From Owenia fusiformis (taxonomy: Eukaryota; Annelida; Polychaeta; Sabellida; Oweniidae), in assembly GCA_903813345.2 (NCBI GenBank), contig CAIIXF020000006.1, forward strand, positions 27,225,936-27,289,935: a DNA stretch of 64,000 nucleotides, written 5' to 3'. Of the stretch, positions 6,591-35,467 are shown piece by piece. Made by a program: the position numbers and the translations under genes. How positions within the stretch are numbered: position 1 is the first letter of the stretch; each line of letters opens with the position of its first letter. Below the pieces are notes generated by a model. It worked only from the letters and a program-made list of their open reading frames with translations. It did not search any database and was not told the origin of the DNA.

Positions 6591-6640
6591 GAGACGCCGC
6601 CCGCCCGCCGCCCGCCCGCCACCTGTCAAGCTGACGACAA

Positions 6641-8325: not shown

Positions 8326-8377
8326 CACTCCCTAACAGGGCTATAGCAACACAGACCGCAAAGCAAGTGTGTTCCAT
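8326..8377 (-). pseudogene. Orphan signal-peptide exon, copy 1
   Basis: A 52-nt exon reads MEHTCFAVCVAIALLGS and ends in a strong donor (G|GTAAGTAAC) in phase 1. Length, phase, orientation and sequence match the laccase first exon at 20707-20758 and the copy at 35416-35467. The hydrophobic core and small residues are those of a secretory signal. No downstream coding exon on the minus strand was found between here and the left end, so it is orphaned or its partner lies outside. The 5' flank also keeps a GAAATGTCT(G)GT word shared with the other copies. It lies inside the mariner-bounded interval. Confidence 0.7.
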
Positions 8378-9381
8378 TATCGTGAAATGTCTGGTCTGAC
8401 AAGGAAATACATTTATAATGAAGTTTATAAAATAATAAAGAAAATATGTTTCAAAATGACTGATAAGGCCCACGTGGGTGTTAAATTTAAAGGCGCTGTA
8501 TAAAGTTTGAACAATTTTAACTAATTTTATAGTACTCCCCAATGTTATCAAAATATGCTATGTGAAACTCTTCCGTTTTATTTCAAGTTGAACTTCTTGT
8601 TTAAATAATCTTGAATTCATTTAAAACACGAGCAAACTTATTTTTAACCAAAAGAGGCCAATAGAGTGACATCATAGACATCATAATTTAAAGCAAATAC
8701 GTTAACGTTTGTTTACGCATAGAACCATGGATTGAACGATTAAAATCCTATGAGTATTGCCTGATCTATTGTTAATTGTTGTATTTGATGTCGTATTTGA
8801 AATCGTTTGTTTCTAAAACAATGGGGAATTCAAATGTTTGAAAATTATGAGAACAATTTTTTTTGAAAAATATCTCAAATGTTTTCAAAAAATTTGAATG
8901 AAAAACTATATTTTACACAGGGCCTTAAGATTAAATATACATAGGCATCAGCTCATTAGGTGTGAATAACCGGATAAACATATTTACACATCAACACATT
9001 TAATATATAAAATAACATATCAATCAAATAGAATAAATGTGTTTATGATTTTAGTCAAACAAATTGTGACCGATTTTCACGTCACATTGTTCAAGGTCAA
9101 TTCTAAGATGACGAGAAATCTCGTCATTCTGGGTAGTCAAGAGGCAGTATGAGTACAATTTTCCAATATATCATGTGTAACAAGGTTACGCATTATTTAC
9201 TAACTAATTTCCCGAATCATAACTGGAATACGATACTTTTAAGCATATTAATTTTGTATATAAAATGTAATATACAAATGTATTATCATAACAAGTACAT
9301 TTTCCAATATTCGAAGATCGTAGCCATTAAGTTCAATCATAATTACACACATCATTTATAATTATCCATTTGTTTAATATT
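8378..9381. other. Non-coding interval
   Basis: AT-rich. The stretch around 8490-8580 (ATAAAGTTTGAAC, CCAATGTTATCAAA, GTGAAAC) resembles 22450-22530, upstream of the laccase, and may be duplicated promoter flank. No exon was recognised. Confidence 0.4.
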
Positions 9382-12300
9382 TCAATCATATAATATGGCA
9401 CAGATTTCCCGCGGAGTCAATTTTTCATATGTATTTAAGATGGCGTCTGCAAGATTAATTTTGTTATCAGTGCGGTCAGTCTTTGGTGTTCCAGATCGCT
9501 GAAGGTACTGTTCATTCTCATCACCACAACTGAAGTGATTGTACCACCCTTCAATGGCTTGCCTTGTCAATACTTTGTCTCAATGATTGCACGTCTTTGA
9601 CTTTCCCGCTTACTGCCTGTCTCACGGTGTATAACCCAAACGCTCCTACATGCACGACGGAGCGTTTCTTTACTGAAATTAAACAAAGAAACGCTCCGGA
9701 GTAGGAAAACTGACTGGCGGGAATGATGAGCCGTCTGACAATTTCCCCAATAATGGGAATAAGATGTATGAGATACATATTTCGAGTATACCATTCGATG
9801 GGTGTGATATTCATGTTGTACGTGGCTGGCTGTTGACGTTTGAAGCAATTAGGAAGAGCTGTACGAAGCAGTATAGTTATCAAAATTCAAAAACGTATTT
9901 GTCATTCTACCGGTCAAAACCCCTTTTGTCGATACATGTGATTAGTTGAGCCAAGATTAGAGCACCAACGTATATTTTAGTCAAATTCCAATGCTTCAAC
10001 GCACCATACATTATCGTAATACAGTGAAAACAAATAAGTGTTAAAAATTGACATTTTTGATGTAATTGAACATAGCTGAAACTAAACCTATTTTTGCTCA
10101 TCATTTTATGTATTCTAAAATAGAATGCCTTTATCTGAAGTACGTCAGCATACTTTTTGATCGTTTCTATTGTAAGTAGCGTTGATATCTGGCTCCAAAA
10201 TTGTGAATTTCGGTGAAATTGTCAATGTAACAGGACAACACGCTTTTGAAAACATGTCATAACTCAATAATAAATGGTCGCATCTTTTAATTCTGGTTAT
10301 GCTGATATAGAGAACATTCATTCAGAGTGTGATGAGAGCACCGGAATTGATCTCCACCTATAACCGAATATATAGACTCAATAAAGTAAATGTAAAATTT
10401 ATTCTGTGAAAATCGAAATGGTCGTTTAAACACACCAAAACGGCATTAGGGAAATCCGAGAAAAATAAGTTATATGTGGTTAGCAAGTCCTTGATTCAGT
10501 TTATCAGACCAGCATGTTCCAAATCGTGATAATAATTGCGATTGAATTATAATGAGCATTATCTGAACATTTCTGAAAATTCACCGTTTAAACGACCAAG
10601 ATGTAATTCACACATGGGCAGCATTCTAGTGTAAAGAAGGACACTATTCAAGAAAACAATATATCCACTCTGTTTTAACGAAAACATTTTACGAAATAAC
10701 CAGCACGACCCCATCTATGAGCGAATATGGTATGAAACTGTGACAATCGACATGCGTGAAAATCGACATGGTTATACCATTGAATTCAAAGCAGTGAATT
10801 AGTCATTTCTATAAATCGCAAATGGATAGATTTGATTTTATATGATTACCAATACACTGATAACATATGCATAACAGTTTTCCGATAATTACGCATAAAG
10901 ATCAATTGATAGACAATGAAAAGATAACAGCTAAAGAGTTTTCTCTTTGTTCAGCGTACCTTTTTCCATTTTATACGTCTTTACAAAAATACGTTACATG
11001 CAAGCAGATGATAAGTTATTTGAAACTTCCATAAGCATAATTTACCGAAAGATTTTCACTACAAAAATCATTATGAAGACCATTATAGCCCAAAATGTGT
11101 CAACCTCTCTAAATGACGTTTCGTTCAGTGCATTCCCGGGGATTGTTCACTTCAATTATAAAGTCTATTAACGTTTGGGTTCATTTTCCTTTTCAATGAA
11201 TGCATCATTCTCAATGGTGAACAGCATAAACAGGCATCTCTTATTTGTAATATGAAAGAATTTATAGCTTTTCAACGATGTTTATTTGCTTATCATTACT
11301 TTTTAATTTCATTATTACGATCTGATCTACTAGATACATTACGATCTGATGTACAAGATTCGGAATGCCTTCGTCAAACGTAATTCGTTGCAAATCAATG
11401 CCCGAGAAATAAATAAATCAAAGATTCAAGAGATGAGGTGCATAAGATTACGTCCCTCATTGAAAAATATCGCCAATCCAATTTCCCCTCTTCGAAAAAT
11501 AAAACCGTGGGTAGACCACTAAAATATATAGACTTCAAGAGCTTCAAACAAAACATCAGAAGAAACACATTTAATAGCGAAAGAGATGTGAAATCAGAAA
11601 TCCGGAAAAGGGATCGAGTCTGACAAGAAAGAAATTTGTTTCTCTAAAGCGGAAATTATAGCGACTAAAACAAAAATCTCAGAATGAAGCAAAGCATAGT
11701 AATAAAAACACTTCCGGTGATAATGGAAAAAAGTCTTGTGATAGGAACTTCAGTGGAGAGGGGGGAGGGGGTTTATAGGTGAAGCGCTTCGCAGATAGTG
11801 GTGTCAAGAGAAACGTCTCTACACCGTTGCAGATGATTTTTATGATTGAACTATACGTATACGTCAGCCTTACTGGACTCGACTCGACATCAATATCATA
11901 TTATGTTTCAATTGATAACGTACACTCGAGTAGAATGAGGATCGGGTTCTTGATTTGAAATATGTTAAAGGGACATTTCAGATCTAGATAGATGCTGCTT
12001 GTACTCCAATATTACGTTAATAGTTGTCCTGTTGCTGTGATGCATGCAGGAAAAACGTCACTACGTCAACCTGCAACTGGTCTAAGCATGCATTAAAAGC
12101 TAAACCCAAAGGAAAAATTACTCAAATTGTAAAAACGAGGCAAAGTACCATACCTGGTATATGAGTTAAAAGGGAAACATATACCAAGGGTGTCAAAAAA
12201 TATTTTAACGACATGGCATCTGTCATCCAATTATCATTCAATCTAAAAATGTAAACCCTTGTCTCGTAAATCAGTGCAATGTTTTGGTAAAGTTGGTGTG

Positions 12301-14144: not shown

Positions 14145-14559
14145 TTTTGGATATGTGTGAGTCTTTGAGCCTGACTCAATATGACTCACTATTCTAAAAA
14201 TCCATTGTGATGTTACAGCACATTTAGTTCCTGAATTTAAAGCGCACCGGCATACACATGACAGGTGACCCTTGCTTAATACTTTTGCAAAAGCATTCTG
14301 TAGACCTTACAAGTGTGTTATAGTTTTAAGTCATAAACATAATATCAAACGGAAATGACAAAAATGATAGATCCCGCCCATGTAAAATCTAGTTAAAATG
14401 ATAGTGAATAGCTGAAACGATATAAAATGCCTTTAAAATAATTTTCCAATTAGTGGATTGTTCAACGATCTAACTTCAGTGAAAAATCAGATCGACTGGC
14501 TAATGTTTAGAATACCTACAAACGTACATGTATGTTCATTCCTTTTGAATCACCCCTCG

Positions 14560-15060
14560 TATATATTTTATGAAACACGGTTACAACGTTCCATATCAAC
14601 GTTACCAGAAATTTAGATTGGCCTCGTATATATGACGTAATGTAAGTACGTTACAGTCTCGTTATTTTAGCGACGTAATTGTTTAGGTCGCTATACTACG
14701 TTCCTGACACGTGATATTTAAGTCAAATGTAACGTTCTTTAAACATCTGTGCGAGTCCACACCTTCCTGTACCTACAACGTTCCATATTAACGTTGCTAC
14801 AACTTGAGATATATATTCTGACGACGATATCACAACGTAAATTTGTTAGCTGGGTTTACTATAAAAACAAAATAAGAATGCCATTAGAGCAGACGTCAGT
14901 CTCCGATCACAGGGCTTCAAAATTGATACAAGGCAACATTGCAAGTGTGTAAATGTTTTATTTTACGTAGGTTTCATGCTTATGGCTCATATGCCCTACA
15001 TCTCTAAATAGCATAATATCCCAAGCTTATCTCATTACGAATGAAGTGATTAAACTTAAG
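14560..15060. other. Non-coding; start of local duplication
   Basis: No exon recognised. From about 14930 the sequence matches 16440 onward (GCAAG..GTGTAAATGTTTT, ATAGCATAATAT, CTCATTACGAATGA), the 3' flank of the laccase. Confidence 0.5.
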
Positions 15061-15062
15061 TA

Positions 15063-15701: not shown

Positions 15702-16857
15702 TATATTCATATTTATTTAACATCTGAAATAAAACAATTAGTTTAGCCACTGAAAGTGTCAAAGGATGGCAAAGGATTGTCGATTTTCAAAAATTCATCA
15801 AAATTGAGAAAATTTGGAGGTATTGGAAATAACGTCAAGTTACGTTTCCATCAATAATAGTATAAGTATTTTCATCGCAGGTAAAGTAAATAAAAATTCA
15901 AAGGTAAATAGGCTTTAACACGTAGTTCAATGGGGAGCTAAGGTTACCAAACTTATGGAGGGGAGTGTATCGATATGCAATGATGAATAGATAAAGACCA
16001 AACACATTTTAAAAAACGGATTCATCGAATTAATTTTTAAACCCTTATTTGTCTCCCGATTTAAATTAAAAAATCCCCCTTTTCTCCAGATTTTTTAGAA
16101 AAAATATCCCGATTTTCTTATAACTTGACAGGTATGTTACGAATGTCTATCCGTGTCAATAATAAGGCGGATCAATGGCTGTTACTTACCAGAGTCTACA
16201 AGTGTCATGGTAACGAATACTCTAGGAAAGTTGATAAAATGTGTTCATTTTTAAATTGTTCAGAATGCAAATGAAAAATCATTTAACTATATCGTAGAAT
16301 CGTAGCATGTTTCGAATGATTAGTAGGTTAAATAACAGCAGATCAATATTAAAAGTCAATAAGTGTTTATTGCTTAACAAAGGAAATGAACGCATGTGAC
16401 AAAACCCTTTATAATCCTTTACTTTATCAATCAGGTAGTAATGCAAGGAAACGTTGCAAATGTGTAAATGTTTTCATTGACAGGCAAATCGATTGAAAAT
16501 ATGGACCTGTATTTAAGATAATGGCAAGAAAGAAGTTTGTTATATATTGGGTAACCGAATGTCATGGTTACACGCAAAGTGCGATTGATCCCATCTTAGG
16601 TTAACTGGATTGGTGGACATTACAATGTACCATGTCTTTGGCTCAGGGATGTACATCGTAGATCATGAATTTTCAAATAGCATAATATTCAAAGCTCATC
16701 TCATTACGAATGATGATATTCAATTAGGTACATTCATGTTTATTTTATATATTAAAATAAAACAATTAGTTGAACACTGAAACTATCAAAGGATGGCAAA
16801 GGATTTTCCTCTCAAGTTTTGTATTAGACATAACTGTGATATGTTCTTTTCTCTCTA
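15702..16857. other. Laccase 3' flank with duplicated segment
   Basis: 16440-16815 matches 14930-15062 joined to 15702-15790, without the transposon (shared AAAACAATTAGTT, CACTGAAA, TCAAAGGATGGCAAAGGATT). This part presumably holds the laccase 3' UTR (read on the minus strand). No other exon was seen. Confidence 0.5.
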
Positions 16858-19800
16858 TCACATATCACCTTTACACTGTTGAACACACCTAGCGAGTAAT
16901 TTCCGAGCATTTGGATCCAATGCAGCGGTTTCTGTACATTTCACCCAGCAGGTTTCTCCAATGACATCACCCTGCAGGACACAAATCAATACAATTATTA
17001 AAAGGGACATGTTTTCAGTCAGTAAGCTTACGTGGGGTCGGATGGGGAGGGTCAAGGATTAATGTTATAAATTATATTAGTTTTATATTTCCATTAACAT
17101 ACATATTATTTTAATGCTGCATTTTGTATCACAGCTGTCAATCATTCACAACAATTTAATAAATAACAATGTTTTCATCTGTAATTATTCTAAAATTATT
17201 ACAAACATACTTCTGTCACACCGCATGTTTTTGAACATTTCTTTATGCCAAGCTTATTGCACATCAAAGTACAGGGTCCATATGTTAATTTTGGCCCTAA
17301 AATAAACATCAAAATCTAGAGTTAAAAGACAACACCTCTTTATATCACGTCGATATCATGTGATACTATAACGTTGCCCAATTAGAACTCACTGAATTGT
17401 CTAAGGCTAATATATAGTACTATATATATTTGTTTTTGATAAATAAAATTTTTATATCATACTAAAGATGCTAAAAATAGTGTCATATGCCTAAAACGCC
17501 AAATATTCCATGTACAGTGTATTAAAACTACACGATTCCAAAACTAGTCTTTACCTTATTGGACTAACGTAAATAGACTTCAAATGAATTATATACACAC
17601 TTACCAATTCGTTTTTTTGCGGCCTTATCTGTATTTACAGCCCTGTTATACTCCGCAGAAGACCAATCAAATGTATTACATGTCGGGAACCCCTTAGGCG
17701 GTTTTACTTGACGCTCCCCGGCGATGTTCAGTACAAGAGCCATTCCCTCTATAAGGTGTGATAAGGAATGACAATGTAGCAACCAGTAGCCTGGATTGTC
17801 AGCTACAAATTGTATAATGACGTACCCGCCTGCTGGAACCAGTATGGTGTCCTTCCTTGGTGGGTGATTGAAGTTTAAATCTATTGGCTTGCCTTCTCTC
17901 CAATGTACTCTGCTACACGATGGTGTATCACACACTATGTCCGGGTTGTTCACGATTTTTCCAGTAGTTTCATCAAATAGAGGGTATCCCATTTTTAGGA
18001 CTTCGAACGTAAAGCCGTGAAGATGTATGGGATGGTGACCATATGTTTGCGGTTCACTTTTACTTAAAAGTGTCAGTCGAACAACCTGGTTGAATTTGAA
18101 GTTAAGTTCATGGGTGCATTTGCAGCCGCTGTCAATATCGCTACAATCACTTGCGCATGGTACGGCGCCATTGTTTGACTCAGTCCATGGGGCACTAGGA
18201 AATACGAATCTAATTTTGTTCACCGAGGAACCAATGTCAAAATCAAAATCTAAGAATTCTTCTTCATAAACGTCGTTTACGGAAAACATCGATGATCTGA
18301 TGTCTTTCATCTCACTGATTGGAATGCAGAGCAGGTGGTTCGAATTAGGATGATTTGGAAAAGGACAGTTCAGAACTTTACAGGGGTTTGATTGCGAACA
18401 TTCTCTTTGAGTAGACACTGGATCTAAATTTGATTGAACTCCATCATATATTAGTTTAGCATTTATTTCTTGGTTATTATCCTCAGAACCAAGTCCATCC
18501 GTCAACGTTTTTGCTCTGATCCAATATTTTGAACTTGGTTGAACTCCGTTTATCTTAAAGTCAACTTCCTCACCTGGGAATAAGATAATAGACTGTACGG
18601 TAAATGGTTCTATTTCGTTTCCGTCCAATGACAATATGATCAAATCATGGCCATCGATTGAAATCCTGTACGGGTATTCAGCTGCCGCATTTACCGTTCT
18701 AAATCGTTTTGTGCTACCTGACTTGATTGTTGTCTCGAACAAGGGAGCTTTGTTGTTGAAACGTCCCCTTCCGTTAATCAATCCACTTTTGTATTTCAAT
18801 GCTGATAACTCTATACCGTCTAAAGAATAATCTCTATTTTTAGCGTTAAACCAGAATTCGCCAGTTCCCGGAGGAAAGTCCAACTTGTATGGACTTGTCA
18901 TATCACTTGTGGCCCCTTCAATATGCAACCAATCAGTCACAAACAATGGAACAGAATCTTCGATTTCAGCACCGCCTTTTGTTTCCCTCTTATGGACGAT
19001 CATCATCCCAAACAGTCCATCCATTCGTTGGACTTTCATATGTGAATGATACCAGTGGGTCCCGCTAGGTGCCGCTGTGAACCTGTATGTAAATGTCTGC
19101 TGTGGATGTATTGGGCAGTTCGTGATATATGGCATGCCGTCCATCCAGGGAGTGTATTTTTGATGTATACCATGCCAATGTATGGATATAGCTTCGGCTA
19201 GCAATTTGTTTGTCACACGCACAACAATCTGGAAAATTAGATATTTTAGACCTCATTTGGAATGTCGACAGAATACAAAAATTATTGCTCATTCTAACTA
19301 TGTCTGATTACTATATAAAACATTACTAACGATAATTGTTTGTAGAATCGCTATAAAAAGTATTAAAAGGAGCGGGCATTTCGAAATAATTTTTATCATT
19401 AACTAACCTGTGACCCTTCTCCTACTTCTATCGTTGGACCCGGAAACAAGCTATTGATGGTAATGATATTTCGGGTGATACCATCTGCTGTTATCACATC
19501 ACTAGCATTGACTACTAGATCTTCAACGTTGTCGTAGTATCCATTTGGAATTAATTTAAGTGTTCCGTCTGACATAAGCGTCACTGAATTGCTCACGTAA
19601 CTATCATGGCCTTCAGCAGATTTGTATGTGTAAACCATCGTTCTTTGATGTTGGATCACCATCTCATACTCGCAGACATCGCTCCAACAAATCTCAGAGA
19701 GCACATATACATTTCCTAACAGGCAAAGGCATTGAATACATTCAGATGCATTTTACTTTTTAGTCAAAGTAAATAATATAGGGGGCTAAATGTTGGAGGT

Positions 19801-20758
19801 AATCTTTCAAACATAATTGCAATATTTTTCTTACCATCTACATTTACATTGTCTAAAACATCTTGAAATCTGAATAAATATCAAGTTTATATATGCGGGT
19901 GTCATTTTCTCAATAATTGAAAAGAAGATCTTTTAAGCTTTGCCCTTCTAGTCTCATGACATAAAATATATCTTGGGAAATGTTGTTTTAACATATTTGG
20001 GGCAGAGCTAACACAGTACCAGTACTATTCTTGTTACCTTTGAGAAACCCTGTCCATGGTTTAAGTAAAAATAAAGTAAAGAATACAAAGCCAAATATCA
20101 ATGACAAAATAGTCCTGTTTTTGCGATCCTGACATTACGTTTTTAGTATTTTTGGCGTACGGATACCCAGAACTCTTATTGTAAACTATTGTAAGTTCTT
20201 CAAGAAAATAATCTTACATTACATTATAGAAATACATCCACATATGAGGAATCTTCTATTAAATCCTCTATTAAATTTTGTTTACCCCATATGAAGGTGA
20301 GCAATACAAAAAAACGTTTTAGGAACTGGTTATCGATATAATTAGAGGTACTAATAAGTTGGATTAATCTCAGATGATGCCACGTGAATTTATTTTTATT
20401 TTTAACAAAGAATATGATCTCCTTTTTTCTTATATAAATCCTAGAATAAAAATTATTTTCTTAGTGTCATGTATGATATGAATAATTTGAATAAACTTCA
20501 CTTATCACGACGAACCTAAGCCCTCCAATCAATCCTATTAATAATCGATGTATCTCAAACATACTTTCCTTGGATAAGAAAACGTCTATGACAAAAACAT
20601 AAAAATACAAAACATAAATCCATGAATCTGATAATACAATTCCTTATAATTATCTTGGCATTATTTGCGTACATATGTACAATGCTGATTAAGTATTGTT
20701 ACTTACCATACCCTAAAAAAGTTATAGCAATGCAGGCGGCAAAAAACGTGTTTTCCAT
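16858..20758 (-). CDS. Secreted laccase-like multicopper oxidase, complete
   Basis: Exons, minus strand: 20758-20707, 19715-19408, 19228-17605, 17296-17211, 16971-16858 (stop TGA); all junctions are GT-AG and phases agree (1,0,1,0), giving about 727 aa. Exon 1 is a signal peptide (MENTFFAACIAITFLGY). Three cupredoxin domains carry all copper motifs: HWHG (137-140), HSH (181-183), HPIHLHG (about 517), and HCHSLSHLIEGM (about 604), which holds the type 1 Cys-His site with a Met axial ligand. The family oxidises phenols and diphenols with O2 reduced to water, outside the cell; in invertebrates it serves cuticle, periostracum or shell tanning and defence (known), and the role here is inferred. 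The two last exons add a tail of about 65 residues with CTLMC, CSKTC, CWVKC and CVQQC pairs that ordinary laccases lack. The start ATG is the only one in a signal-like exon in phase with the domain. Confidence 0.93.
19835..19852 (-). other. Candidate 18-nt microexon of the laccase
   Basis: Between laccase exons 1 and 2 the minus strand reads TGTTTTAG, then 18 nt, then GGTAAGAA style donor. Both splice signals are good. The 18 nt begin and end in phase 1, so inclusion would add DNVNVD without shifting the frame just after the signal peptide. It may be an alternative cassette; RNA evidence is needed. Confidence 0.5.
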
Positions 20759-20859
20759 CGTGTGATAGATAAATGAAATGTCTTGTCGATAACAGTTTAT
20801 TACTTGTGAAATAAAAGAATCAATAAGCCGTACAATATTTTATTTATAATTCAATAAAT

Positions 20860-21955
20860 CAACTTCAAATCAGGATAAAAATAGTTACATTCAATATGGT
20901 ACATTACATATCATCAAGGTTATACAATTTCAAACAATTTGGTATATAACATTATATCATGAAATCAATAGTAAAGTTTTATTATACTTATTTGGGAGGC
21001 CGGGTTGCTATTTAAGGTCTCCATATTTAATTAAGGGAGAAAATAGTAAATCTGCGGAATTATGTTAATTTTTTATTTATAGAATATCATTCTTTTGTTA
21101 GGTGAATACATGCTTGGATATTGATATTTGCATCATTGTGTGACTAAATTTATTGTTTATCAATTTCAGTATTGTTTAATAACATTTTACACTTTGTTTA
21201 TTTAAAGAATTTTAACAATTGCTCAATATACCCCCACCCCCTCCTCTCTGCATCAACAATAAGCTTCAAGTGGTAGCGCAATCTATCAATAGCCTCATTG
21301 AGAGGTTTTTGTTACAATTCATTTCAGCACTTTAGGATTCTGTTTCAGCTCATCAATGCTGTTTATTGGATGCTTTTGATTGTACCATTTCCTCGAGATG
21401 GCTCCATGTATGGAAATCAAACACATTAGCATCGGGGCTGTTAGGTGGCCAAGCATCGAGATCAATCAAATTGACACCTTGTTTGCAAAGAAATGCCAAT
21501 GTCTCCTTTGATCTATAGTACGAGGCAATGTCTTGTTGGAAAATAAAATCCTTGTCACATATCCGTTTAATGTCTTTTAACAGACCCCTTATTGAGTACT
21601 TATTGATAATAAACAACACTGAAATTCATAAACAATAAGTTTAGTCACACAATGTGCAAATATACAAGCATGTATTCACCTAACTGAATGATTTGGTATA
21701 AATAAAAAATTAACATTATTCCGCAGATTTACTATTTTCTCCCTAAAATCTAGATACCTTAAATACCGACCCGGCCTCCCAAATAAGCATAATAAAACTT
21801 TAATATTGATTTCATGACATATTGTTATATACCAATTTGTTCGAAAATGGTTTACCTTTAAAATGATATATAAATCAATGTATCATACTGAACATAGCTA
21901 TTTTCATTCTGATTTAAAGTTGGGTATTGTTTTTTTGGCCCACCCTGTATATGGA
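20860..21955. mobile_element. Tc1-like element with ~320-bp inverted repeats
   Basis: 20862-21175 and 21625-21955 are inverse copies (TTTGGTATATAAC, ATTTGGGAGGCCGGGT, GGTGAATACATGCTTG). The right end carries a Tc1/mariner-type terminus (inverse of TACAGGGTGGGCCAAAAA near 21950); the matching outermost bases on the left are eroded. A transposase fragment lies between the arms. The element sits upstream of the laccase first exon, and the duplicated site at about 27.83 kb lacks it. Confidence 0.8.
21353..21619 (-). pseudogene. Tc1/mariner transposase DDE relic
   Basis: The frame includes KDFIFQQDIASYYRSKETLA and WPPNSPDANVFDFHTW, recognisable as the second Asp block (FQQDxAxxH) and third block (WPPxSPDxNxxE) of Tc1/mariner transposases. 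The His after the second Asp is replaced by Tyr and the expected final acidic residue by Phe/Asp, so activity is unlikely. It is flanked by the long inverted repeats of the 20860-21955 element. Confidence 0.7.
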
Positions 21956-21985
21956 ATAAATGAGAAATGAAAAAAAAATCAGGCA

Positions 21986-23379
21986 ATGCATCAAAAGTGT
22001 TTTCACGTGTTTTGTGGACTTTGACTTTGAAATTCCATGGGATTATTACTTGACTAGGCCCTATGTCATATTTAAATAGTTCGTCTGAATTATTATTAAT
22101 TTGATCTGTTGGATACATTGGCATGTCCATAACTGATTTAGAATACTTAAAACATGTGACATCAACAGTAGACATAATATTCCATGTTGCGTGCATTTTG
22201 ATGAATAAAGAATCGGGAAAATCTTTATTTTTAAACAATTCCAAGGTATTCAGAGTCAAAATAACAAAAATGAAATGTTGAAATTTGTCGGATTGCAAAC
22301 TGAAATGGCTTTGACCCCCCCCCCCCCCTGGACTTTCAATTGCAGGGGGCGAGTGTCCAAAATCGCCGTTTGTTTTCGATAATCCGCCGTTTGATAGAAG
22401 TCAAATAGTCTTTCCAGTGGGTGTAAAATTGTGTTAATCAGTTAAAGGCCCCATATAAAGTTTAAACCACTTTGGCTTATATTGTTGTCTTATCCAATGT
22501 TATCAAAGTGTGAAATGTGAAACTTTTTGTTCAAAATATCGTGGATTTATTCAAAACTACCTTTAAGAGGTCACACTTATCCTTTGAAGTGATAATTCAC
22601 ACCGATGCATAGCAATCATCCTCACTTGTTTTTTTTGCCGACAAAATCAAGAAAATTGGTTGATAGATGAGCGAGCAATGAACTCATACATGCATGAAAG
22701 TGGTTCAGGGAAAGATGCATTTCAATATTTTAATTCTCATCAGAAACCAATGGTAAAATAATATTAAAAACATAATATATTCATCCTTTTAACCTGGTTA
22801 GACAGTCAAAATTGGTTTATTTTTTAAGTTTAGCATATTAAGAAAAGATTTACATTGAAAAATGTTGCCACCTAAGTGATGTCACGATGTGGTCACTTAG
22901 GTTGAAAATATTTTCGATATGCTAAATCATTGAATTGGCACATCAGATATAACATGTTTAACATAGTGTGTCCGTTTTTCAATCTTTATATTGGTTTTAT
23001 AAAGATATAGAGGTTCTTATATGAGGACCTGTGCAAGATCGTCCATTCTTGATGAGCTTTGATAATTCTTCTTTATCGAGTCGCAGACGAGATAAAGAAA
23101 TATTATCAAAGCGACAATCGGATAAATTATGAATGTTCGCACAGGTGTCAACGGAACCAAACAAATAACCCCGCTTTCCCGAACCCGAGTTTCCAGGATT
23201 CGCCTCGCATGCCTTCGACTCTTTCTCAAGATTTGGGCCCTATATTGTACCCCTACCTTATCATCCTGGTGTCTCGTTTATAACACCCTTGTATTGTATT
23301 TTGTTTACCACCAATGAAGGTGAGCAATACCTCTTGGGTATATCCCGCATATATACGGTCGTAATTTACGTAATTAACC
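21986..23379. other. Laccase upstream region, no gene recognised
   Basis: 21986-22090 matches 27850-27955 (ATGTCATATTTAAATAGTTC) as part of the 20.5/27.1-kb duplication. A poly-C tract lies near 22313-22328. Short hairpins occur at 22869-22905 (CACCTAAGTGA / TCACTTAGGT) and at about 23056-23122 (TTTGATAAT...GATAAAG style). No convincing exon. Confidence 0.45.
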
Positions 23380-25690: not shown

Positions 25691-25693
25691 AAA

Positions 25694-27121
25694 TCATCCA
25701 TGAACAACTCTGACCAACTGCCTAGAAGTGTGTGAGTTTTCATCGGTGAGATTCAACAGGTTTATACCCACAATTATAGGTAGATGGTCGATGAGTTTTT
25801 CAAAGAAGATGTTCCTATGCATTGAAAAATACCCACACTGCAAATAATGCACAATGATACGTTCACATAACCTGTGGCAACTGTTACAACGAAACATTTT
25901 ATAACTTGGATCTGTGGCCAGGTTAATGAGCTTATAATACCAAGTGACCACGTGTATTTTGGAAACTTAAGACCTATTTGCCATGCGAAACACGGTTTAA
26001 TATTTTGATGAATATGTTGAAATATAACAAGGTTTGAGTTTGCTTGGACACCATTTTCCTAATATCTTTGTCATTTTAAGAAGTAACTTTGCACATTTTT
26101 ACATCACTCAATTTTCTACCTGCCTACCTTATTTCATGAACATCAGATTGATAGTCACAGTGTTACAGCACTTAAAAGAACATTCCCGGTGGCCACTCTT
26201 GCGCTGTAGACCAACCTGCATATGTCGTCCAAAATGTCCTTACCTATGGGGATGTGGCAAAGATGAACTGTATAAGAATGACCTCAGGACAATACAATTG
26301 CAGACCTCAAAAGTGAGATCATCTTTATCATTCAGGCCATACCTGCTGAGGAATGCATTTGGATCATTGAGAACTGTGCAGGTTTGCCTACAGCGCATTG
26401 ATGGCCAAACCTGAAGCATGTTGTTCAAAGTGCTGTGAAATTGTGACTATCAGTCTGATTGTCATGAAATATGGTAGGGTAGTAGGAAATTGAATGATTT
26501 ACAAATGTGTGAAATATTAGGGAGTAATTTTCTAAAATGACAAAGATATGAGGAAAATGCAGGGTTTCCGTTTTTTGACCACCCTGTAGTTGTGCTCTGC
26601 GAAAATACTCATAATATCGCTAAATGAAGCCTGAATAAAGATTAAGCCGAAATGGTGAACAGAATGAAGAATGAATTATGATCGTACTCCAAATTTTTGA
26701 AACAATCAGTGTACCATAAGCACATTTTTGCATTGAGTTTCATTTTGGCCGATGTGGCCAGAGGTTTTGAATCGAAATTTGGAGTAACATCGTTACCAAC
26801 ATATGTGACCTTTCTTGTTTCGTGATCTGACTCAGCTCCGATGTGCCATTTACGCAAGCCTTGATTTCTTCCAAATTTTCTTTTTGACTCGTTAAAAATT
26901 TCAATATTTCTTTTGCTGCATTTTCCTGCATGATAAATCATGCGCCATTTTGTGCTGTAAGAAAGAACTATATCTAGTAGTGCTTGTAATGCATTTAGGG
27001 TTGTTGAAATAAGAGTGGTGTCATCGGCAACGAGTATACATTGTATATGTCGATCCCATAGCTGTAGACCAGCATTGGAGTCAATTAGGTCATGTATTAT
27101 TGTCATGTATGATATGATCAA
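25694..27121 (-). pseudogene. Non-LTR retrotransposon (LINE) relic, split
   Basis: The minus-strand part at 27121-26642 shows the reverse transcriptase core (GLQLW...IQCILVADDTTLIS, then ALQALLDIVLSYSTKW), where the catalytic YADD/FADD box reads VADD. A second part at 25951-25694 has a C-terminal Cys-His motif (CNSCHRLCERIIVHYLQC) like that after many LINE RT domains. The two are separated by a Tc1-like relic (26035-26588), which suggests insertion into the LINE. The 5' part of the LINE is missing. The right edge meets the duplicated segment at about 27.1 kb. Confidence 0.65.
26035..26588 (+). mobile_element. Tc1-like relic with long inverted repeats
   Basis: 26040-26250 and 26330-26588 are inverse copies (ATTTTCCTAATATCTTTGTC; CACTCAATTTTCTACC). 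The right end has a CAGGGTGGTCAAAAAACGG-type terminus beside TA (26587-26588). The plus strand near 26229-26272 keeps PYLWGCGKDELYKND, matching the LWGYLK block near the transposase C-terminus. A related relic is at 54.43-54.66 kb. It lies within the LINE relic. Confidence 0.7.
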
Positions 27122-27955
27122 TTTGAAAAAAATATCACTACGAACTTGGGTTATTGAATGGTATTTTTCATTCTAATAACTCCAATTAATCTTTTTTTAT
27201 TTATCGATGTATTTCAAACATACTTTCCTTGGATAAGAAAACGTCTCATATGGCAAAAACATAAAAATACAATACATAAATCCATGAATCTGATAATACA
27301 ATTCCTTATAATTATCTTGGCATTACATTCGTACATATGTACAATGCTGATTAAGTAATGTTACTTACCATACCCTAAAAAGTTATAGCAATACAGGCGG
27401 CAAGAAACATGTTTTCCATCGTGTGATAGATAAATACTCTGCACTTCTTCTTAACAGATGCACCGGAATCCATGAATCAATTTTATATCTTTCAACTATA
27501 TCCTGTTAAACATTTTAATTATACTGTTTACCGGCTTACTTGATTTAAATTTTGATGACACATTGTAAATTCAAAAGTATATGCACCTAAATTTAAAACA
27601 ATTTATAAAGAATTACAACTTAATGATATGCAATTTTGAAATGTTCTAGCTTGTGATAAGTCATACACCCCCTGGGGTGTCTTTATCATTATTATGTAAA
27701 TATGTTAATATGATTTTAATAAATAAAAAAATGTCTAGTCGATAACAGTTTATTACTTGTGGGATAAAAAATCAATAAGCTAATAAGCCTGACAATATTT
27801 TATTTATAATTTAATAAAATCAACCGAGACAGGCGAGGCATCAAAAATATTTTCACATGTTTCCGTGGACTTGGACTTTGGAATTCCTTAGGGGCATTTC
27901 TAGACTAGGCCCTATGTCATATTTAAATAGTTCGTCTGAATTATTATTGGTAGCT
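27100..27955. repeat. Segmental duplicate of the laccase 5' region
   Basis: 27100-27440 matches 20470-20780, and 27731-27955 matches 20783-20860 joined to 21980-22090. This copy lacks the Tc1-like insertion at the junction (after TAATAAAATCAAC) but has about 290 bp (27440-27730) absent from the other. It carries the broken signal exon. Confidence 0.85.
27369..27419 (-). pseudogene. Broken signal-peptide exon, copy 3
   Basis: It starts MENMFLAACIAITF, then a TAG stop: a T-run one base shorter than in the laccase exon shifts the frame, making the exon 51 nt instead of 52. The donor (G|GTAAGTAAC) is intact. It belongs to the duplicate of the laccase 5' region, and no laccase body follows it, so it is a pseudo-exon. 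Confidence 0.85.
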
Positions 27956-27959
27956 GAAA

Positions 27960-28255
27960 TTCAAAATGGCCACCATTTTTCATAAAAAACTGTTATCTTT
28001 GATAAATCAAATACCACTGGATGTTTGGTTCAAATGTCATATGCTGATACTTTAAGATAAAGGAGGTCTTCTCAAGAAGATATTTTCAAGATGGTTGCTA
28101 TTTATCAAAATGACTGCCATTTGTTATAAAAAATGTGATCTTTGATAATTCAAATACCAGTTGACAGTTTTGGTTCAAATTGTATATGCTGCTACCTAGG
28201 CCTATGGACTAAGGAACTCTGTTCAAGAAAAAAATATCAAGATGGTCACTTATTA
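27960..28255. repeat. Two tandem copies of a ~130-bp unit
   Basis: The words AAAATGGCCACCATTT/AAAATGACTGCCATTT, ATCTTTGATAA and TTTGGTTCAAAT recur with an offset of about 130 bp, downstream (3') of the propeller gene. Confidence 0.5.
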
Positions 28256-28478
28256 TTAAAATATATTTTGTTCGGTGGGATTTGCTACTCCTTGGAGTTG
28301 CTGTTTGTCTAGTTGTGAATAGTATACTAATATTTACTGGATCATGCTATTAATTTCACTTCGGTATTTATTGTTTTTTCAACTAAGTTTTCTGATACAA
28401 TTTTTCTACTGGCCGCTCTATACATAAAACATATCATTTCACTTTGGCCTTCTGTTGGGGAACTTTTCTTTTTTACAT

Positions 28479-31400
28479 CTAAAATGTCTCGCAATATTGC
28501 TTCATTCCTTTGTGTTTCCAATGAATCTTCCACAAACCATCAAATTCATGCTCAGTCATATAGAGCTCATTAGAGTTGGGTGTGAAGACAATATTTGTAG
28601 CGTTAAGAAAGGGCAAGTTTATTCGACACATTGGTGAACCGCCATTTGGACCGAAGACATACATGGTACCCGACTCATATTCCAAAACGATAAGATTCCC
28701 TTCTTCGTCCAACTCCAAACCATCTACTACACTGTTAGCTATAAATATAAGAGTTGAGATTTAATAATAACTTTAAACACATTCTTAACAGTTGTCAATG
28801 TATACTTGTATATAAGCAAATCAATGTTTATCCAATTAATTGTGTTTCCTGCTTTCCTGTGAAATCATATTAGATGGATGGATACATGACAAATATTTGT
28901 CTTATACCAAACTTTTACATTTAAAATGGATAGTGTATTTCCTTGACCATTACATGTCGTCTGGATTAGATAACTTCTTCTTTTCTTAATATGAAACTAC
29001 CGCGTAAAAGCTGTGAAGGTGTTCATATTTGTTAAGAACGACTCATTTTGAAAATAAGTCAATTGTTATCTATACTAGTCATGGCTACCATAACAATGAG
29101 GGTAAAAATCTAGAGGTCTGCCTCACCAGGAAGACTTCCCCATACTTGTTTGTTTCTAATCTGACAAGGGCCGATGATATCGAAACTCCAGAGAGGCGAG
29201 TTCTTATTGTATGTCACTGCAAAGATGAGTTTCACTGGATTCCCGTGATCATCATGTTTCACTACTATGCCATTCGGGTATATAAAACCAGAAGTCACCT
29301 TCTTGAGTTCATCGGTCGTCTTGTTGTAGCAGTACACACTCCCAAATGCCTCCTAAAAGTGAAAGCAATATACATCGTAAAACTGAAACAAAATGCCAAA
29401 GTCAGTCACTCCTTGTCTAATTGGTAATAGCGGGCAGAAATATACTTCTCATTCGCAAACAAATGCGATATGCCCCTGTCCATTTTATCTACATTTATTT
29501 ATTTATCTATCTATTTATTAATTTATTCTATGACTCAATTGGTGACAGAGTAATAGTCCATTCCCTAACACCTACATGTAAGGAGGAAATCAATTGTATT
29601 CTGCTATTTCAACTTGTCTCAGTTTGTAAGTGCCCTATGTGATGAATTGGAATAATTATGAATTATTAGGGTAAATCAATTCTCTCAAAAACATAGTTCA
29701 TAATCAAGTATGCTTGCCTCATTTCTTAAAGTATGCAAAAAATTGTATACTAACTAACTTGAAGCGGAATTGTCGTAGTGTCATGAATTCAAGAATTGTG
29801 GTGTACCTCGGATGACTCGGTGAATGTGTTAGGGGCGATGGGTCCATATGGGGCAGTTATCCACAGGTTGCCTTGATAGTCAAAAGTACATGTAAGATCA
29901 TTACAACCTTGTACAACATCACCTTGGCTGTCCTTGGTTGCTACCTGTAATAGTTATAGTAATCGTTTTGGATACTGGGGTCTGGGTCTGTTTTCCTTAC
30001 GACTCATTGCACTCTAAAGGTTTTTTTGTATTACTATTCAGTATTCCCATTTTTGATGATTTATAGATTCAACATGAAGAAATAGCTGTTTTGCGAAATA
30101 AGCCCTTCGTTGCGGTATAATGAATATCTTAGCATCACCAACATAATATTACTTCAACTACATGGATTTTAAAATTTATTGGTTGTTTCTTAAAGGCTTC
30201 CTCTATCAACAGGGTCGACACAATCATCATTAATTGTAACAAAGCATTTTATTGCATGTTTAGAATTTCAGCGGGTAAAAGAGTGAAATATTGGACCTTG
30301 GGCCTTCGTCTCTTGGTCCAATATTTCACAATAGTGCCCTTTGACATGAGGTTGAGTTCTCATTGTATGATAAAATCGGAAAATGATTTTGAAATAAAAC
30401 TATTGATAAAAAATAATAAACAACAGTAGATATCAGTACTCACTTGCTGGAAAGAACCATTTTGGTTCACCTTTAATAGGCCAAGCCTCACATCAGCTAC
30501 CCAAATATTGTTATCGAGGTCACATTGAGATCCTGCCGGCATCCCAACTAATCCATTTACCGATAAAGTAGTCAAGACATTGGACTGCAAATAAGAGAAT
30601 AAAATAATGGATATAAAATATACCGGTGTACATTTCCCGTGGCAAATTCTATAATATTATTAGGCTATTATTATAGGATAGATATCCCAAAGTAATAAAT
30701 GAACACAACTTTCATATTCTGTATTCAATCTATATTTCAAAACAAGGCTGATACTAGTGACACCTATCGACAACTATTATTGGTTGTGCTAACACAATGG
30801 AACAATCACTTAAAGTCGGGCCTCTCTCCGATACGCAATCTTAGGTTGTTCCTAGGGTCTCTGGAAATATTTTGTGCTTTAATGAGGAAATATACAATAA
30901 TGAACAAATGGAGCAAATACTGTGAAGAAATACTCACAATAAAGATGTTATTTTGACGATTGTTCATTCAATTGCTCAGAGGTTCGCCGGTAAACAAACT
31001 TCTTCGAGGATTTCTAAATTCAGAATGTCACGTGACTAACTAAAAAGAAGTTTAAATAAATCCCCTTAAATCACACGCGCGTATGACCAATGCCTGGTTA
31101 GTACAGAGTGCTCGCCTGCCAGCGCGGCGGTACGAGTTCGAACCTGACAGCGTCTTTTTTTATTTTTTAAGTTAATGGTTATGCTTTGATTTTACGCTTA
31201 AAAAACGTTTATGTCTACGTCAAATTTAGATTTAAGCATTTATTATCCCTTCAGTCGTATGAAAATGGAAAAATAATTTATGTTCACATATTGCGTTTTG
31301 GAGAGAGGTATAGGTTTAAATCAATCAAATATACAACAATTATCAGTTGTAGTGAAATGAACACGGCTTTATCATTATGTAAATTATCAAATGTAAAATA

Positions 31401-32209
31401 ATATGACAATTAGGCATGTCACTGGAACGACTAAAACTTTGGGAATTTATGCAAGAATAACCTTCCTATTTTCCAAGTCGATTTTTCGGATTTCCCCCGC
31501 CATATATGCAGTCGTGTAGAGATTTCCGTTCCTTGTAAATACAGGACTTTCGGGACTCCCCAGGCCATCTATTATTAGTTCGAAATCCGCTAAAATAAAA
31601 TAAAATTTAAACTACTACATGCTTGAATAAAGCTCAGATTAGTAAAGTCAGTACTTCTCGGATGTTTCGCATTATTGCACTTGATATATCAATGCTCATC
31701 TGATTTAATCGATAAAAGCGCTATCTTTCACTTGTGATATCCAACCGAAAGTCAAAGTATTACCACTGATTGGTGAATGTCAGCGGGCCTTTTTAAACAT
31801 ATGGCCCGGTTTTGACCAATTATACAGCTGCAAGCATGACAATGATGGGATATTCGACGGTATATAGATCCACAAATTCAATTAATACATCACTTATCAA
31901 GATGCAATACACTATATTGTTTGACTTTACTACAAATACTAAATACATAAAACGATGTATACTTTGGGTGTTAATAAGTCGTATTTGTTTGTAGCATGAA
32001 CGAATTATTTTGTTTACCCTAGATATATTATCAAACACAAATAATTTATAAAATGTAAACTACTATAATTGTACTGTACCTGGTTTGGTGTGTGTTTCAC
32101 AGTTTTTAACTTTACAAAGTTGAATGCATCCACTCAGAATTGATCCATCTTCAGAGCCCACTGCTGAGGCAGAGCAATTTTTCCAACAAGACTTCATAAT
32201 TGCATCACT
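28479..32209 (-). CDS. Secreted SMP-30/gluconolactonase-like propeller protein
   Basis: Exons, minus strand: 32209-32080, 31589-31462, 30584-30444, 29944-29807, 29352-29127, 28738-28479 (stop TAG). GT-AG junctions and phases 1,0,0,0,1 agree; 340 aa are visible. The first exon encodes a Cys module (CWKNC...CIQLC). The rest is a six-bladed-propeller type sequence with the family repeats: ADFELIIDGLGSPESPVF, GNLYTTAYMAGEIRKID, GMPAGSQCDLDNNIWVADV, CTFDYQGNLWITAPYG, YPNGIVVKHD, GLELDEEGNLIVLEY. SMP-30/gluconolactonase and related NHL-like proteins hydrolyse lactones or bind ligands; the substrate here is unknown. The 5' end is incomplete: the candidate signal exon at 35416-35467 ends in phase 1 while this exon starts in phase 0, so at least one short exon is missing from my model. 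Confidence 0.85.
30283..30329. repeat. Perfect 15-bp-stem hairpin in an intron
   Basis: GTGAAATATTGGACC (30283-30297) and GGTCCAATATTTCAC (30315-30329) are exact inverse partners around a 17-nt loop, between propeller exons 3 and 4. Function unknown; it could be a small foldback repeat. Confidence 0.6.
31088..31161 (+). repeat. tRNA-like sequence with poly-T end
   Basis: TGGTTAGTACAGAGTGC (31095-31111) resembles an A box and GAGTTCGAACC (31134-31144) is a B box; a T-run follows at 31154-31161. The middle resembles a Gly-type tRNA (CTCGCCTGCCA), but acceptor and anticodon arms do not pair well. I take it as a tRNA pseudogene or SINE head within a propeller intron. Confidence 0.5.
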
Positions 32210-35200
32210 CTGTATAAGGGTGTTTCATTTTTTAAGAATGTTCTCAAATCACAACGGCTTTAACACGGGATAACAAATGGTGCTGATAGTTCACCGATTT
32301 TTTCAATAAAATCGGATGGTTAAGACTGGTCACGTTAGCCATTCTTTCCGTCCGATTTGATTACATTTCGAGCAATGTCTAATTTTCAATGGAAAACATT
32401 GTTTCGCACTTCTTTGCTGCTCATTTGCCGGGAAGGATTGGAACCAATTTTCCGGTTTGGGAATGCACAAAGACTCTCAAATGATGAAAACTAGATTGTT
32501 CTAGCACATTTTACGTAACGTCGAGATATTGGAGAGGTTAAGCTAACGATGTTTTTCACAACGTAACCGTGAACGCAAAGTACAAAAATTAACAAAGGAA
32601 TGTATCGAGCGCTCATAGTTTTATGCGCGCTTAGTCTACTTCAGATACTCTTTCAGCTTCAGAGTTTCGGGTTTAGAACGGGAGATTTGAATATTTGACG
32701 TTGGGTCAACGGGAACCATTTTACTCGTGTCTATTGAACACTATGCTGTCAATTTTGATTTCGATGCACAGTTGAATTCTTGCTGAACACGATGATGTAT
32801 GTCATGCATGATTTAGCGCCAAAAATCTTACGAAACGAGCTCGTTTAAAATATGTATATAGAAAACCAGCTATAAAACCGCATCAATGACATACTATAGA
32901 ATCATTACACGCTATGGTGTAGTGACGTGTCGCAAAAAGGTGGCGCATTTGTTTTTTAAGGGTATCGCGTGAATGTAACTTTGATTCCCCGGATTATAAG
33001 ATAATATTCTAATTAAAGTTATATATCATTTTAAAGCTGTTTCGATGAAGATTTTAGATCAACTACACTCCGTTCACATTTTTTTGCGCGTTCGTTTTTA
33101 AAAAAGAGTTTTTTACCAAAACATCTGGCAAATATCCTATGTTGACACGTTACATTTTGAATTATTTTTCGTCTTTAAACGCTCATAACTCAAACAATCT
33201 ATGACTATTATACTTATTTTTCGTCTTGATAAAGGTAGATGGAAGTTTTATTTTAAAGGATGAATTTTAGTAAGCGTCCCATATTGTGACGTCATAGAGT
33301 CTGAAAAATAGAATCTGTTGACAGCGACCTTTTTTGCTCATTTTTTGGTACCTTCAACTTTTCAGGTGTACATTAAACAAAAAATACGAGATCAATTTTT
33401 AATAAATCATACATGATTATTTTGCTCCTAAACTCTAGTTTATTAATAAATAGTTGATTTTGTTCACAAAAGTATGTGTTTTCTGTTGTATGTGGAAAAG
33501 TGGAGGACGAAAGGTTTTCAAAATTCATTAAAATAGGGCTAATTTACGCCATTCGCCTATTTTCAAGCACAGCCACACGTATATTTATTTCACCTAAAAT
33601 ATCAATTGATTCGTGTTTTATGATGCTCCTAGCCCATTAACAATATATATATATGATATCAGAGTTATTCGTCTAAAATGTTTTGAGATATAGAGATAAA
33701 TGTGGAGGACGAAAGGATTTTCATGTGTGTACATTTTTCTCAAAAACGTCACATTCTATCATGTTAAAAGTGTGAGGTGCGAGCTTTTTGCGACACGTCA
33801 GTCTAAACAAACACTGGATTTGAACGGCTATTTATATGAGAAGGCTACATGAATTTGTATATGGTCGAGTGATACGTACAGGTTCAGTTTCGATTATATA
33901 TGCAAAGCTTAACCTCTCCATTGCCAGTCTACTAACCTGTGGCAGATAAAAAAAATGGAAAATGATTTCAGCCACTTTAGTTATAGAAAAATATTTTTTG
34001 ATTTTATGATTAAAGATTCTAAAATATTCAAATTGTTGAAAGAAAAAAATGTCGTAAATTCAACTGGCCGATGTGCTTTTTAATCTTTCGATTGTTTAAC
34101 TTCCCTGGGGTCAGGGTATATGACTCTGCGATAAATAAAAAGTCCTAGAACAGTAAACTAAATAGTTTGCATCAATTGAGAGTGTTTTGATGTATTCCAA
34201 AATGCTTAAAACAGGAAACAAGGGTTTTGGGTTTTCCATTGAAAAGTGGGCGTTGCCCGCATTGTAATCCAACTGAACGGAGAGAATGCATGACGGACCA
34301 GTTATCCAATGTTGTTCGGTGAATACCAGCACTATTTTTAACATCGTGTTAAAGAGCCGCTGTGATCTGAGAACATTCTTCAAGAAAACACTCTAACCTG
34401 TATACATTAAAGCAATTATAAATAAAACACGTGAAAGGTACATTACTTAATTATAACGTGTATGTGTAAATATATATAATTTAAGCCCAAGTGTTAGATA
34501 TTATCAAAGTCTAGTGGAAATAAAATGAAGTGTAATTAATTAACCACCATGTGGAAAGAAAACTCATTGAACTATTATACTATCAATGCACATACTGTTT
34601 CGATCCTACACACTCGTGAACATTTTTCTATACCCAGCTTTTTGCATGCAAACTTACAGGGCCCATATTTAGAACCCAATCCTGAAAATTTAAAATATAG
34701 AAAATACTGTCATCAATTACAAATATTACATTTTGCAAGCTTGATTCAAGATGGTTAAAACAGGGCCCATATTTAGAACATAATCCTGAAAATTTAAAAT
34801 ATAGAAAATACATACCGTCATAAATTACATATATAACATGTTGCAAGCTTGATTCAAGATGGTTAAAACAGGGCCCATATTTAGAACCTAATCCTGAAAA
34901 TTTAAAATATAGAAAATACATACCGTCATAAATTACATATATAACATGTTGCAAGCTTGATTCAAGATGGTTAAAACGGCGTGGTGGGTTCTGCAAAAAG
35001 ACTACGCTACTCGTCGATGATCATAGAAAATGGCTGTTACAGCTTGAATCATTTTTTACTTGAATATTGCATTACCTGCCTTTACACAGGTGAATAGTGA
35101 ATATACTCAAGGGAATTCAAATTTCGGATTCGAATTAAGGAATGAATCTCATCAAAATGGCCGTCTAATGACCTAGATTTATATAACGTATAACCCTGAT

Positions 35201-35415
35201 TATGTATTGGTATGGTACTTAGTAACGTTTTGACGAACGTAAAAAAAACGCCGATATATCATTTTTCCAATTTTTTCAACTTTCAAGATCGAACATGAAG
35301 ATTTCATTTGAAATTATCAGTTCAAATTTCCCGCCGGTTAACCGACTTTAACAGGTAAAAACCCCCGGTTAACCGGTTAATGCTCAAGCGGTTAATTGAC
35401 ACCACTAGTACTTAC
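32210..35415. other. Propeller 5' intron or flank, repeat-filled
   Basis: Holds nested inverse pairs: TTGGAGAGGTTAAGCT (about 32530) with its inverse at about 33907, and TGACGTGTCGCAAAAAG (about 32921) with its inverse at about 33786. These look like one or two non-autonomous elements, but target duplications were not found. GTGGAGGACGAAAGG occurs twice in direct repeat (about 33497, 33701). A 121-bp tandem array lies at 34650-34975. A short inserted piece with GGTTAACCGG words (about 35230-35400) interrupts similarity to the 8.3-kb copy. The missing exon of the propeller gene may be here. Confidence 0.4.
34650..34975. repeat. Tandem array, three ~121-bp units
   Basis: CAGGGCCCATATTTAGAAC begins units at about 34658, 34761 and 34869. 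Each continues with CCTGAAAATTTAAAATATAG and ends in GCTTGATTCAAGATGGTTAA. The last two units are nearly identical. Confidence 0.85.
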
Positions 35416-35467
35416 CACTCCCTAACAGGGTTATAGCAACACAGACTGCAAAGCAAGTGTGTCCCAT
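35416..35467 (-). CDS. Signal-peptide exon, copy 4
   Basis: A 52-nt exon encodes MGHTCFAVCVAITLLGS with donor G|GTAAGTAC in phase 1. It is nearly identical to the 8.3-kb copy and homologous to the laccase exon. It is the nearest such exon upstream of the propeller gene and in the same orientation, so it is the best candidate first exon for it, but the phases require an intermediate exon that I did not find. If it is not joined to the propeller, it is another orphan. Confidence 0.6.

What the first reader, a model, noticed from the sequence alone, without database searches (positions are those of the whole stretch)
8326..35467. One signal-peptide exon reused at four places, in front of unrelated genes
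Seen: 52-nt phase-1 exons at 8326-8377, 20707-20758 and 35416-35467, plus a 51-nt broken copy at 27369-27419, all minus strand, all with a GTAAGT donor and a shared GAAATGTCT-type 5' flank. One is the laccase first exon by phase-consistent splicing. Another is the nearest such exon to an SMP-30-like propeller gene. Inference: a secretion cassette (promoter flank plus signal exon) is being duplicated and placed before different extracellular domains, a local exon-shuffling system.
Basis: partly seen in the sequence, partly recalled or inferred. Interest (0 to 1): 0.85.

Follow-up and report, generated by a model that had tools for sequence, protein, structure and literature searches.

The report
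Laccase nested in another gene's intron
The look-alike signal-peptide exons are mostly the ordinary first exons of a tandem family of secreted SMP-30-like genes, but one family member has a laccase gene sitting in its first intron that appears to have taken over its signal peptide and cysteine-rich tail, a clear case of exon shuffling still to be confirmed with RNA.

Summary
The four exons exist as described and are homologous. Extending left of the window shows five tandem minus-strand genes of one plan: signal exon, two Cys-rich exons, SMP-30 propeller exons. The 35.4-kb exon opens the propeller gene in the window. The 8.3-kb exon is no orphan: it is the only signal-exon candidate found for a member whose exon 2 is at 213-306 and whose body lies outside the window. 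The surprise is the laccase. It is flanked, in order and orientation, by an SMP-type exon 1 (20707-20758) and SMP-type Cys-rich exons 2 and 3 (17211-17296, 16858-16971). Frame, splice sites, phases and eight tail cysteines are intact; a stop and AATAAA follow; no propeller exon was found there. A phase-1/phase-1 laccase core seems to have entered intron 1 of an SMP-30-type gene, giving a predicted 727-residue chimera. The broken 27.4-kb copy is a duplicated 5' end with no recognised body, and the 8.3-kb gene pairs an exon 1 of one lineage with a body of another, so 5' ends have moved more than once. The process (phase-1 exon shuffling) is known; this is a clean new instance. Splicing is predicted, not shown.

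The parts
35416..35467 (-). Exon 1 (signal peptide, 52 nt, phase 1) of SMP-30-type gene G5
34596..34681 (-). G5 exon 2, Cys-rich; tandem 108-nt copies of its acceptor and first codons lie just upstream (to 34977)
32080..32209 (-). G5 exon 3, Cys-rich
28479..31589 (-). G5 propeller exons 4-8: 31462-31589, 30444-30584, 29807-29944, 29127-29352, 28479-28738; the spliced G5 reads 386 aa with one stop at the end; Pfam SGL (PF08450) E 4.3e-21. Some donors are weak (GTACAG, GTTATT, GTACAC) and were chosen by frame.
27369..27419 (-). Broken exon-1 copy (51 nt, shifted frame, stop); part of a duplicated 5' segment within about 27097-27948 that pairs with 20461-20863 and 21980-22097; no recognised body follows; a reverse-transcriptase-like fragment (below Pfam's cut-off) lies at 26645-27172
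20707..20758 (-). SMP-30-type exon 1, predicted exon 1 of the laccase chimera (phase 1)
19408..19715 (-). Laccase exon 2 (starts phase 1, ends phase 0)
17605..19228 (-). Laccase exon 3, four copper motifs; ends phase 1 at a GTAAGT donor (start corrected from 19225 to 19228)
17211..17296 (-). SMP-30-type exon 2 (4 Cys), acceptor phase 1, GTATGT donor; predicted exon 4 of the chimera
16858..16971 (-). SMP-30-type exon 3 (4 Cys), ends in a stop codon; predicted last exon of the chimera; AATAAA begins at 16744
16190..16248 (-). Decayed exon-1 copy of a further SMP-30-type gene, 79% (53 of 67) identical to exon 1 of a C12 member (L014)
8326..8377 (-). Exon 1 of SMP-30-type gene G4 (body mostly left of the window)
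213..306 (-). G4 exon 2; carries a frameshift relative to G3
20916..21858 (.). Element with long inverted-repeat arms and a mariner-like ORF (family name recalled, not tested), in the flank upstream of the 20.7-kb exon; lacking in the 27.4-kb duplicate

Best explanation
The repeated exon is the signal-peptide exon 1 of a tandem family of secreted proteins: signal, two small Cys-rich exons, SMP-30/gluconolactonase-type propeller. The laccase arose when a genomic segment holding a laccase core (two exons, phase 1 at both outer ends) came to lie in intron 1 of one family member. Because that intron is also phase 1, the host promoter and signal exon splice into the laccase, and the laccase splices out into host exons 2 and 3, where a stop now ends the protein. 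The propeller exons were lost. Predicted product: SMP signal, laccase, eight-cysteine SMP-type tail, 727 aa, secreted. Shown: order, orientation, homology, open frame, splice sites, phases. Inferred: that these splices are used, that the laccase moved in rather than SMP exons moving around it, and that the protein is made. Separately, array members have exchanged or duplicated 5' ends (8.3-kb gene, 27.4-kb copy), most simply by unequal recombination or conversion in or near intron 1.
For: Five array genes with one exon plan. A scan that uses no family sequence (ATG exon of 40-81 nt, phase 1, hydrophobic, GT[AG]AGT) gives one exon per gene, laccase included; over 123,935 bases and both strands it gives 8 distinct exons, 6 of them these. 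Profiles built without the laccase copy find SMP-type exon 2 at 17.3 kb (26.0 bits) and exon 3 at 16.97 kb (26.2 bits); best in 20 random sequences 4.5 and 6.1 bits. The five-exon splice is one open frame of 727 codons with 8 of 8 tail cysteines and four copper motifs. No AATAAA or ATTAAA in the intron after laccase exon 3; AATAAA 114 nt past the chimera's stop. The C234 relative (72% over the part compared) has a pacifastin-like exon there instead; L011 ends without a tail, and L010 and L011 start with a different signal-like peptide of their own.
Against: No transcript was seen, and laccase exon 3 could simply read on to a stop about 12 codons past the donor. The tail is only 10-13 of 27-28 (exon 2, five paralogs) and 11-14 of 33-34 (exon 3, six paralogs) residues identical to any one paralog compared. 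Codon positions show little sign of selection: exon 2 differences 10/10/15 against G5 and 10/13/15 against G3; two ungapped parts of exon 3 against G3 7/6/8 and 5/4/5. The genome-wide protein search with G5's exon pair did not list these two exons at E 0.01, and blastn at 1e-6 between the laccase and G5 stretches gave nothing (exon 2 appears at 3.5e-5). C234's upstream exons are not on its contig, so its signal could not be compared. I identified no insertion scar.
Confidence: 0.78

Rival explanations
1. The laccase uses the SMP-type exon 1 but ends with its own exon 3; the SMP exons 2 and 3 behind it are unused leftovers of the disrupted host gene.
For: Exon 3 reads about 12 codons past the donor to a stop. 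Tail identity to paralogs is low and codon-position differences are near even.
Against: Both tail exons keep frame and splice sites and all eight cysteines. In a neutral-decay simulation (frame, stops and cysteines only, splice sites not modelled) all were kept in 1.8% of 20,000 runs at 0.1 substitutions per site, 7 of 20,000 at 0.2 and none at 0.3 or 0.4; a recent insertion would still allow it. No AATAAA/ATTAAA before exon 4, one after exon 5. C234 has, read by eye, a phase-1 donor near the same place.
Confidence: 0.15
2. One reading: a mobile secretion cassette (promoter plus signal exon) that is copied in front of unrelated extracellular genes.
For: 27.4-kb copy without a recognised body, G5-type exon 1 on a G3-type body, SMP-type exon before laccase.
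Against: The matches found in the genome lie in this one array (lower bounds). The laccase is flanked by SMP-type exons on both sides, so the laccase entered the SMP gene rather than the cassette entering a laccase gene. Two of the four copies precede members of one family.
Confidence: 0.12
3. Wholly ordinary: the exon is the family signal exon, and the laccase has a different, unrecognised first exon; its closeness to a relict SMP exon 1 is coincidence of position.
For: No transcript evidence for the 20707/19715 junction.
Against: The scan finds no other phase-1 signal exon between the laccase and G5 (other phases and donors were not scanned), and laccase exon 2 begins about where the signal-like peptide ends in L010 and L011.
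Confidence: 0.1

Closest known systems
Phase-1 exon shuffling of extracellular modules and the phase-1 intron at the signal-peptide cleavage site (Tordai and Patthy 2004 and Patthy, seen only as cited in passages of PMC1626468)
   Same: Phase-1 intron inside a Gly codon at the signal/mature boundary; symmetrical 1-1 module inserted
   Different: Here a whole enzyme core is the inserted module, inside a still-readable tandem array that preserves host exons on both sides
Schistosoma japonicum gene family with shared signal sequence and core promoter (PMC3434034; abstract and passages read)
   Same: One promoter-plus-signal 5' end before different genes, ascribed to duplication
   Different: There genome-wide and tied to flanking repeats; here found only in one tandem array, and the laccase case is nesting in an intron
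SMP-30/gluconolactonase (SGL, PF08450) proteins
   Same: G5 scores E 4.3e-21 for SGL; one exon plan in five genes
   Different: The N-terminal Cys-rich part of G5 has no Pfam match above cut-off; in one member no propeller exon is found and a laccase is nested
Laccase-type multicopper oxidases
   Same: Three Cu-oxidase domains and four copper motifs
   Different: SMP-type signal exon and Cys-rich tail instead of an own signal-like start (L010, L011) or a pacifastin-like exon (C234)

Membership tests
Exon shuffling by a symmetrical phase-1 module | Module bounded by introns of the same phase, inserted in an intron of that phase | tested here: met
   Exon 1 ends phase 1, laccase exon 2 starts phase 1, laccase exon 3 ends phase 1, SMP-type exon 2 starts phase 1
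Exon shuffling by a symmetrical phase-1 module | Flanking exons derive from another gene | tested here: met
   SMP-type exon 1 before, SMP-type exons 2 and 3 after, in order and strand
Exon shuffling by a symmetrical phase-1 module | Chimeric transcript is made | not testable with these tools
   no RNA data
Mobile secretion cassette | Copies dispersed before unrelated genes across the genome | tested here: not met
   DNA searches with the 8.3-kb exon (3 matches), the 20.7-kb segment (3 matches) and G3's exon 1 (1 match, itself) hit only this array; each missed known diverged copies, so counts are lower bounds
SMP-30/SGL family | SGL propeller | tested here: met
   G5: PF08450 76.1 bits, cut-off 26.3
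SMP-30/SGL family (laccase chimera) | SGL propeller | tested here: not met
   Profiles of four of the five propeller exons match only G5 in the window; no SGL match in the chimera
Laccase-type multicopper oxidase | Three Cu-oxidase domains with copper-binding His motifs | tested here: met
   PF07732, PF00394, PF07731 above cut-off; HWHG, HSH, HPIHLHG, HCHSLSH present (motifs recalled)
Laccase-type multicopper oxidase | Enzymatic activity | not testable with these tools
   needs expression and assay

The most novel reading that the evidence does not exclude
Intron 1 of this tandem array is a recurrent exchange point where a promoter-plus-signal 5' end is re-paired with different bodies: a G3-type body (8.3-kb gene), a laccase core with an SMP-type tail, and a stand-alone duplicated 5' end (27.4 kb), making the locus a natural workshop for secreted chimeras.
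Probability: 0.25. Interest if true: 0.75.

Novelty: new member of a known kind. Interest (0 to 1): 0.52.

Why it matters
Exon shuffling is usually inferred from old domain combinations. Here host exons, insertion place, intron phases and what looks like the half-dismantled host gene survive side by side, so the route by which an enzyme can gain a new signal peptide, promoter and cysteine-rich tail can be tested directly with RNA and with related species.

Tried and rejected
Cassette dispersed in the genome: not supported, three DNA searches stayed in the array (lower bounds). Retrocopy origin of the laccase: argued against, since the C12 laccase has an intron at the same place between exons 2 and 3. 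Transposon-carried laccase: not supported; the intron before exon 2 matched only itself, and only a 49-nt dispersed piece lies in the intron behind exon 3, at 17339-17387. A second laccase behind the 27.4-kb exon: the exon-2 peptide matched only the known place in the joined region. An SMP-type exon 1 at other laccase loci: best profile E 0.31 in L009, L010, L011, L016 and C234 together. Exon 2 of the C234 laccase: no real match on the fetched part of its contig, which holds all its upstream sequence. Exon 1 of the second C6 cluster: not reached by the stretches L012 and L013. Papers: the listings (15 of 23 shown) showed nothing on a laccase nested in an SMP-30-type gene; that is no proof of absence in print.

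Full report
What was checked. The four exons are at the stated coordinates, minus strand, 52 nt (8.3, 20.7 and 35.4 kb) and 51 nt (27.4 kb), each followed by GTAAGT; the 27.4-kb copy runs into a stop. The window is G000:C6:27225936-27289935 in a 498-Mb genome of 525 contigs. A DNA search with the 8.3-kb exon gives 3 matches, the three intact exons; it missed the 27.4-kb copy, so it is a lower bound.

The array. One propeller exon of the window gene, used as protein query, gives 18 matches; five lie on C6 between 27.17 and 27.26 Mb, all on the minus strand. I fetched 60 kb to the left and found five genes, G1 to G5, with one plan: signal exon, Cys-rich exon 2, Cys-rich exon 3, then propeller exons. 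A scan for an ATG exon of 40-81 nt, phase 1, hydrophobic, ending at GT[AG]AGT, run in the stretch upstream of each gene, gives one exon for each of G1 to G5 and one for the laccase, with a second in-frame ATG for G5. Over the 123,935 joined bases and both strands it gives 8 distinct exons, of which 6 are these. So 35416-35467 is exon 1 of G5, whose eight exons read as one frame of 386 residues with an SGL propeller, some donors being weak. 8326-8377 is the only signal-exon candidate found for G4; G4's exon 2 is at 213-306, with a frameshift relative to G3, and the rest lies left of the window.

The laccase. Its body at 17.6-19.7 kb has three Cu-oxidase domains. Downstream on the same strand, profiles built from the family without this copy find an SMP-type exon 2 at 17.3 kb and an SMP-type exon 3 at 16.97 kb, 26.0 and 26.2 bits; the best scores in 20 random sequences with the window's trinucleotide make-up were 4.5 and 6.1. 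Profiles of four of the five propeller exons match only G5 in the window. Exon 1 (20707-20758), laccase exons 19408-19715 and 17605-19228, then 17211-17296 and 16858-16971 splice with GT and AG ends and matching phases into one frame of 727 codons and a stop (one search corrects the start of exon 3). Four copper motifs and all eight cysteines of the two tail exons are present. An AATAAA lies 114 nt after the stop; neither AATAAA nor ATTAAA lies in the intron after laccase exon 3.

Other laccases. The closest body relative, on contig C234 (72% over the part compared), has behind its core a pacifastin-like exon (PF05375, 28.5 bits, cut-off 27.9) and an ORF with what looks by eye like a membrane segment. 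L010 and L011 begin with their own signal-like peptide, judged by eye; L010 has an in-frame stop; L011 ends soon after the core. The window's laccase exon 2 begins about where that peptide ends. The Cys-rich exon pair of G5 gives 30 listed matches of 43 scored candidates, none at the other laccase places; but the search also failed to list the two laccase tail exons, so absence elsewhere is weak evidence.

Moving 5' ends. Bodies, as six exons' peptides without one propeller exon and with only the part of G4's exon 2 behind the frameshift: G3 and G4 220 of 294 (74.8%), G4 and G5 162 of 294 (55.1%), all nine other pairs 54-61%. Exon 1 plus 10 nt: G4 and G5 57 of 62 (92%), G3 and G4 36 of 62 (58%). 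So G4 carries an exon 1 of one lineage and a body of another. The 27.4-kb and 20.7-kb regions share the blocks 20774-20523/27435-27180 (92%), 20863-20765/27824-27719 (82%), 22097-21980/27948-27830 (87%) and 20515-20461/27145-27097 (78%): a duplicated 5' region, later split by insertions. A decayed exon 1 at 16190-16248 suggests that yet another member stood here.

Reading. The simplest account is a laccase core, phase 1 at both ends, that came to lie in intron 1 of an SMP-30-type gene and took over its signal exon and, by prediction, its exons 2 and 3; the propeller was lost. Against it stand the lack of transcripts, the low identity of the tail (10-14 identical residues per exon), codon-position differences that are near even, and the silence of the less sensitive searches. 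In a neutral-decay simulation frame and all cysteines survive in 1.8% of 20,000 runs at 0.1 substitutions per site, 7 of 20,000 at 0.2, none at 0.3, so a recent insertion with an unused tail is not excluded.

Literature. PMC1626468 (passages) describes the excess of phase-1 introns at signal-peptide cleavage sites and the exon-shuffling debate. PMC3434034 (abstract and passages) describes different genes sharing a core promoter and signal sequence in Schistosoma japonicum. Both concern the same kind of phenomenon; in what I saw neither describes this architecture. Searches with laccase, SMP-30, annelid and Owenia terms listed nothing on it.

Noticed in passing
34656-34977: A 108-nt unit in about three copies repeats the acceptor and first codons of G5 exon 2, giving possible decoy 3' splice sites upstream of the real one.
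   Followed up: partly
46264-49891: Minus-strand gene parts with VWD segments, an EGF-like exon and an ORF with a hydrophobic, signal-like start (by eye); perhaps a further secreted protein beside the array.
   Followed up: no
55724-62500: Inverted repeat pairs up to 293 nt and 97% complementary, with related GT-rich repeats at 2343-3161 near the other end of the window.
   Followed up: no
5774-6592: Tandem array of a 162-nt unit, about five copies.
   Followed up: no
17339-17387: 49-nt piece in the intron behind laccase exon 3 with 19 other listed matches in the genome.
   Followed up: no
213-306: Exon 2 of G4 has a frameshift relative to G3, so G4 may be a pseudogene or the assembly may err there.
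   Followed up: partly
G000 C6:38.99-39.16 Mb, C12:31.23 Mb, C4:9.0 Mb, C7:14.99 Mb (outside the window): Further members of the same SMP-30-type family, including a second cluster on C6.
   Followed up: partly
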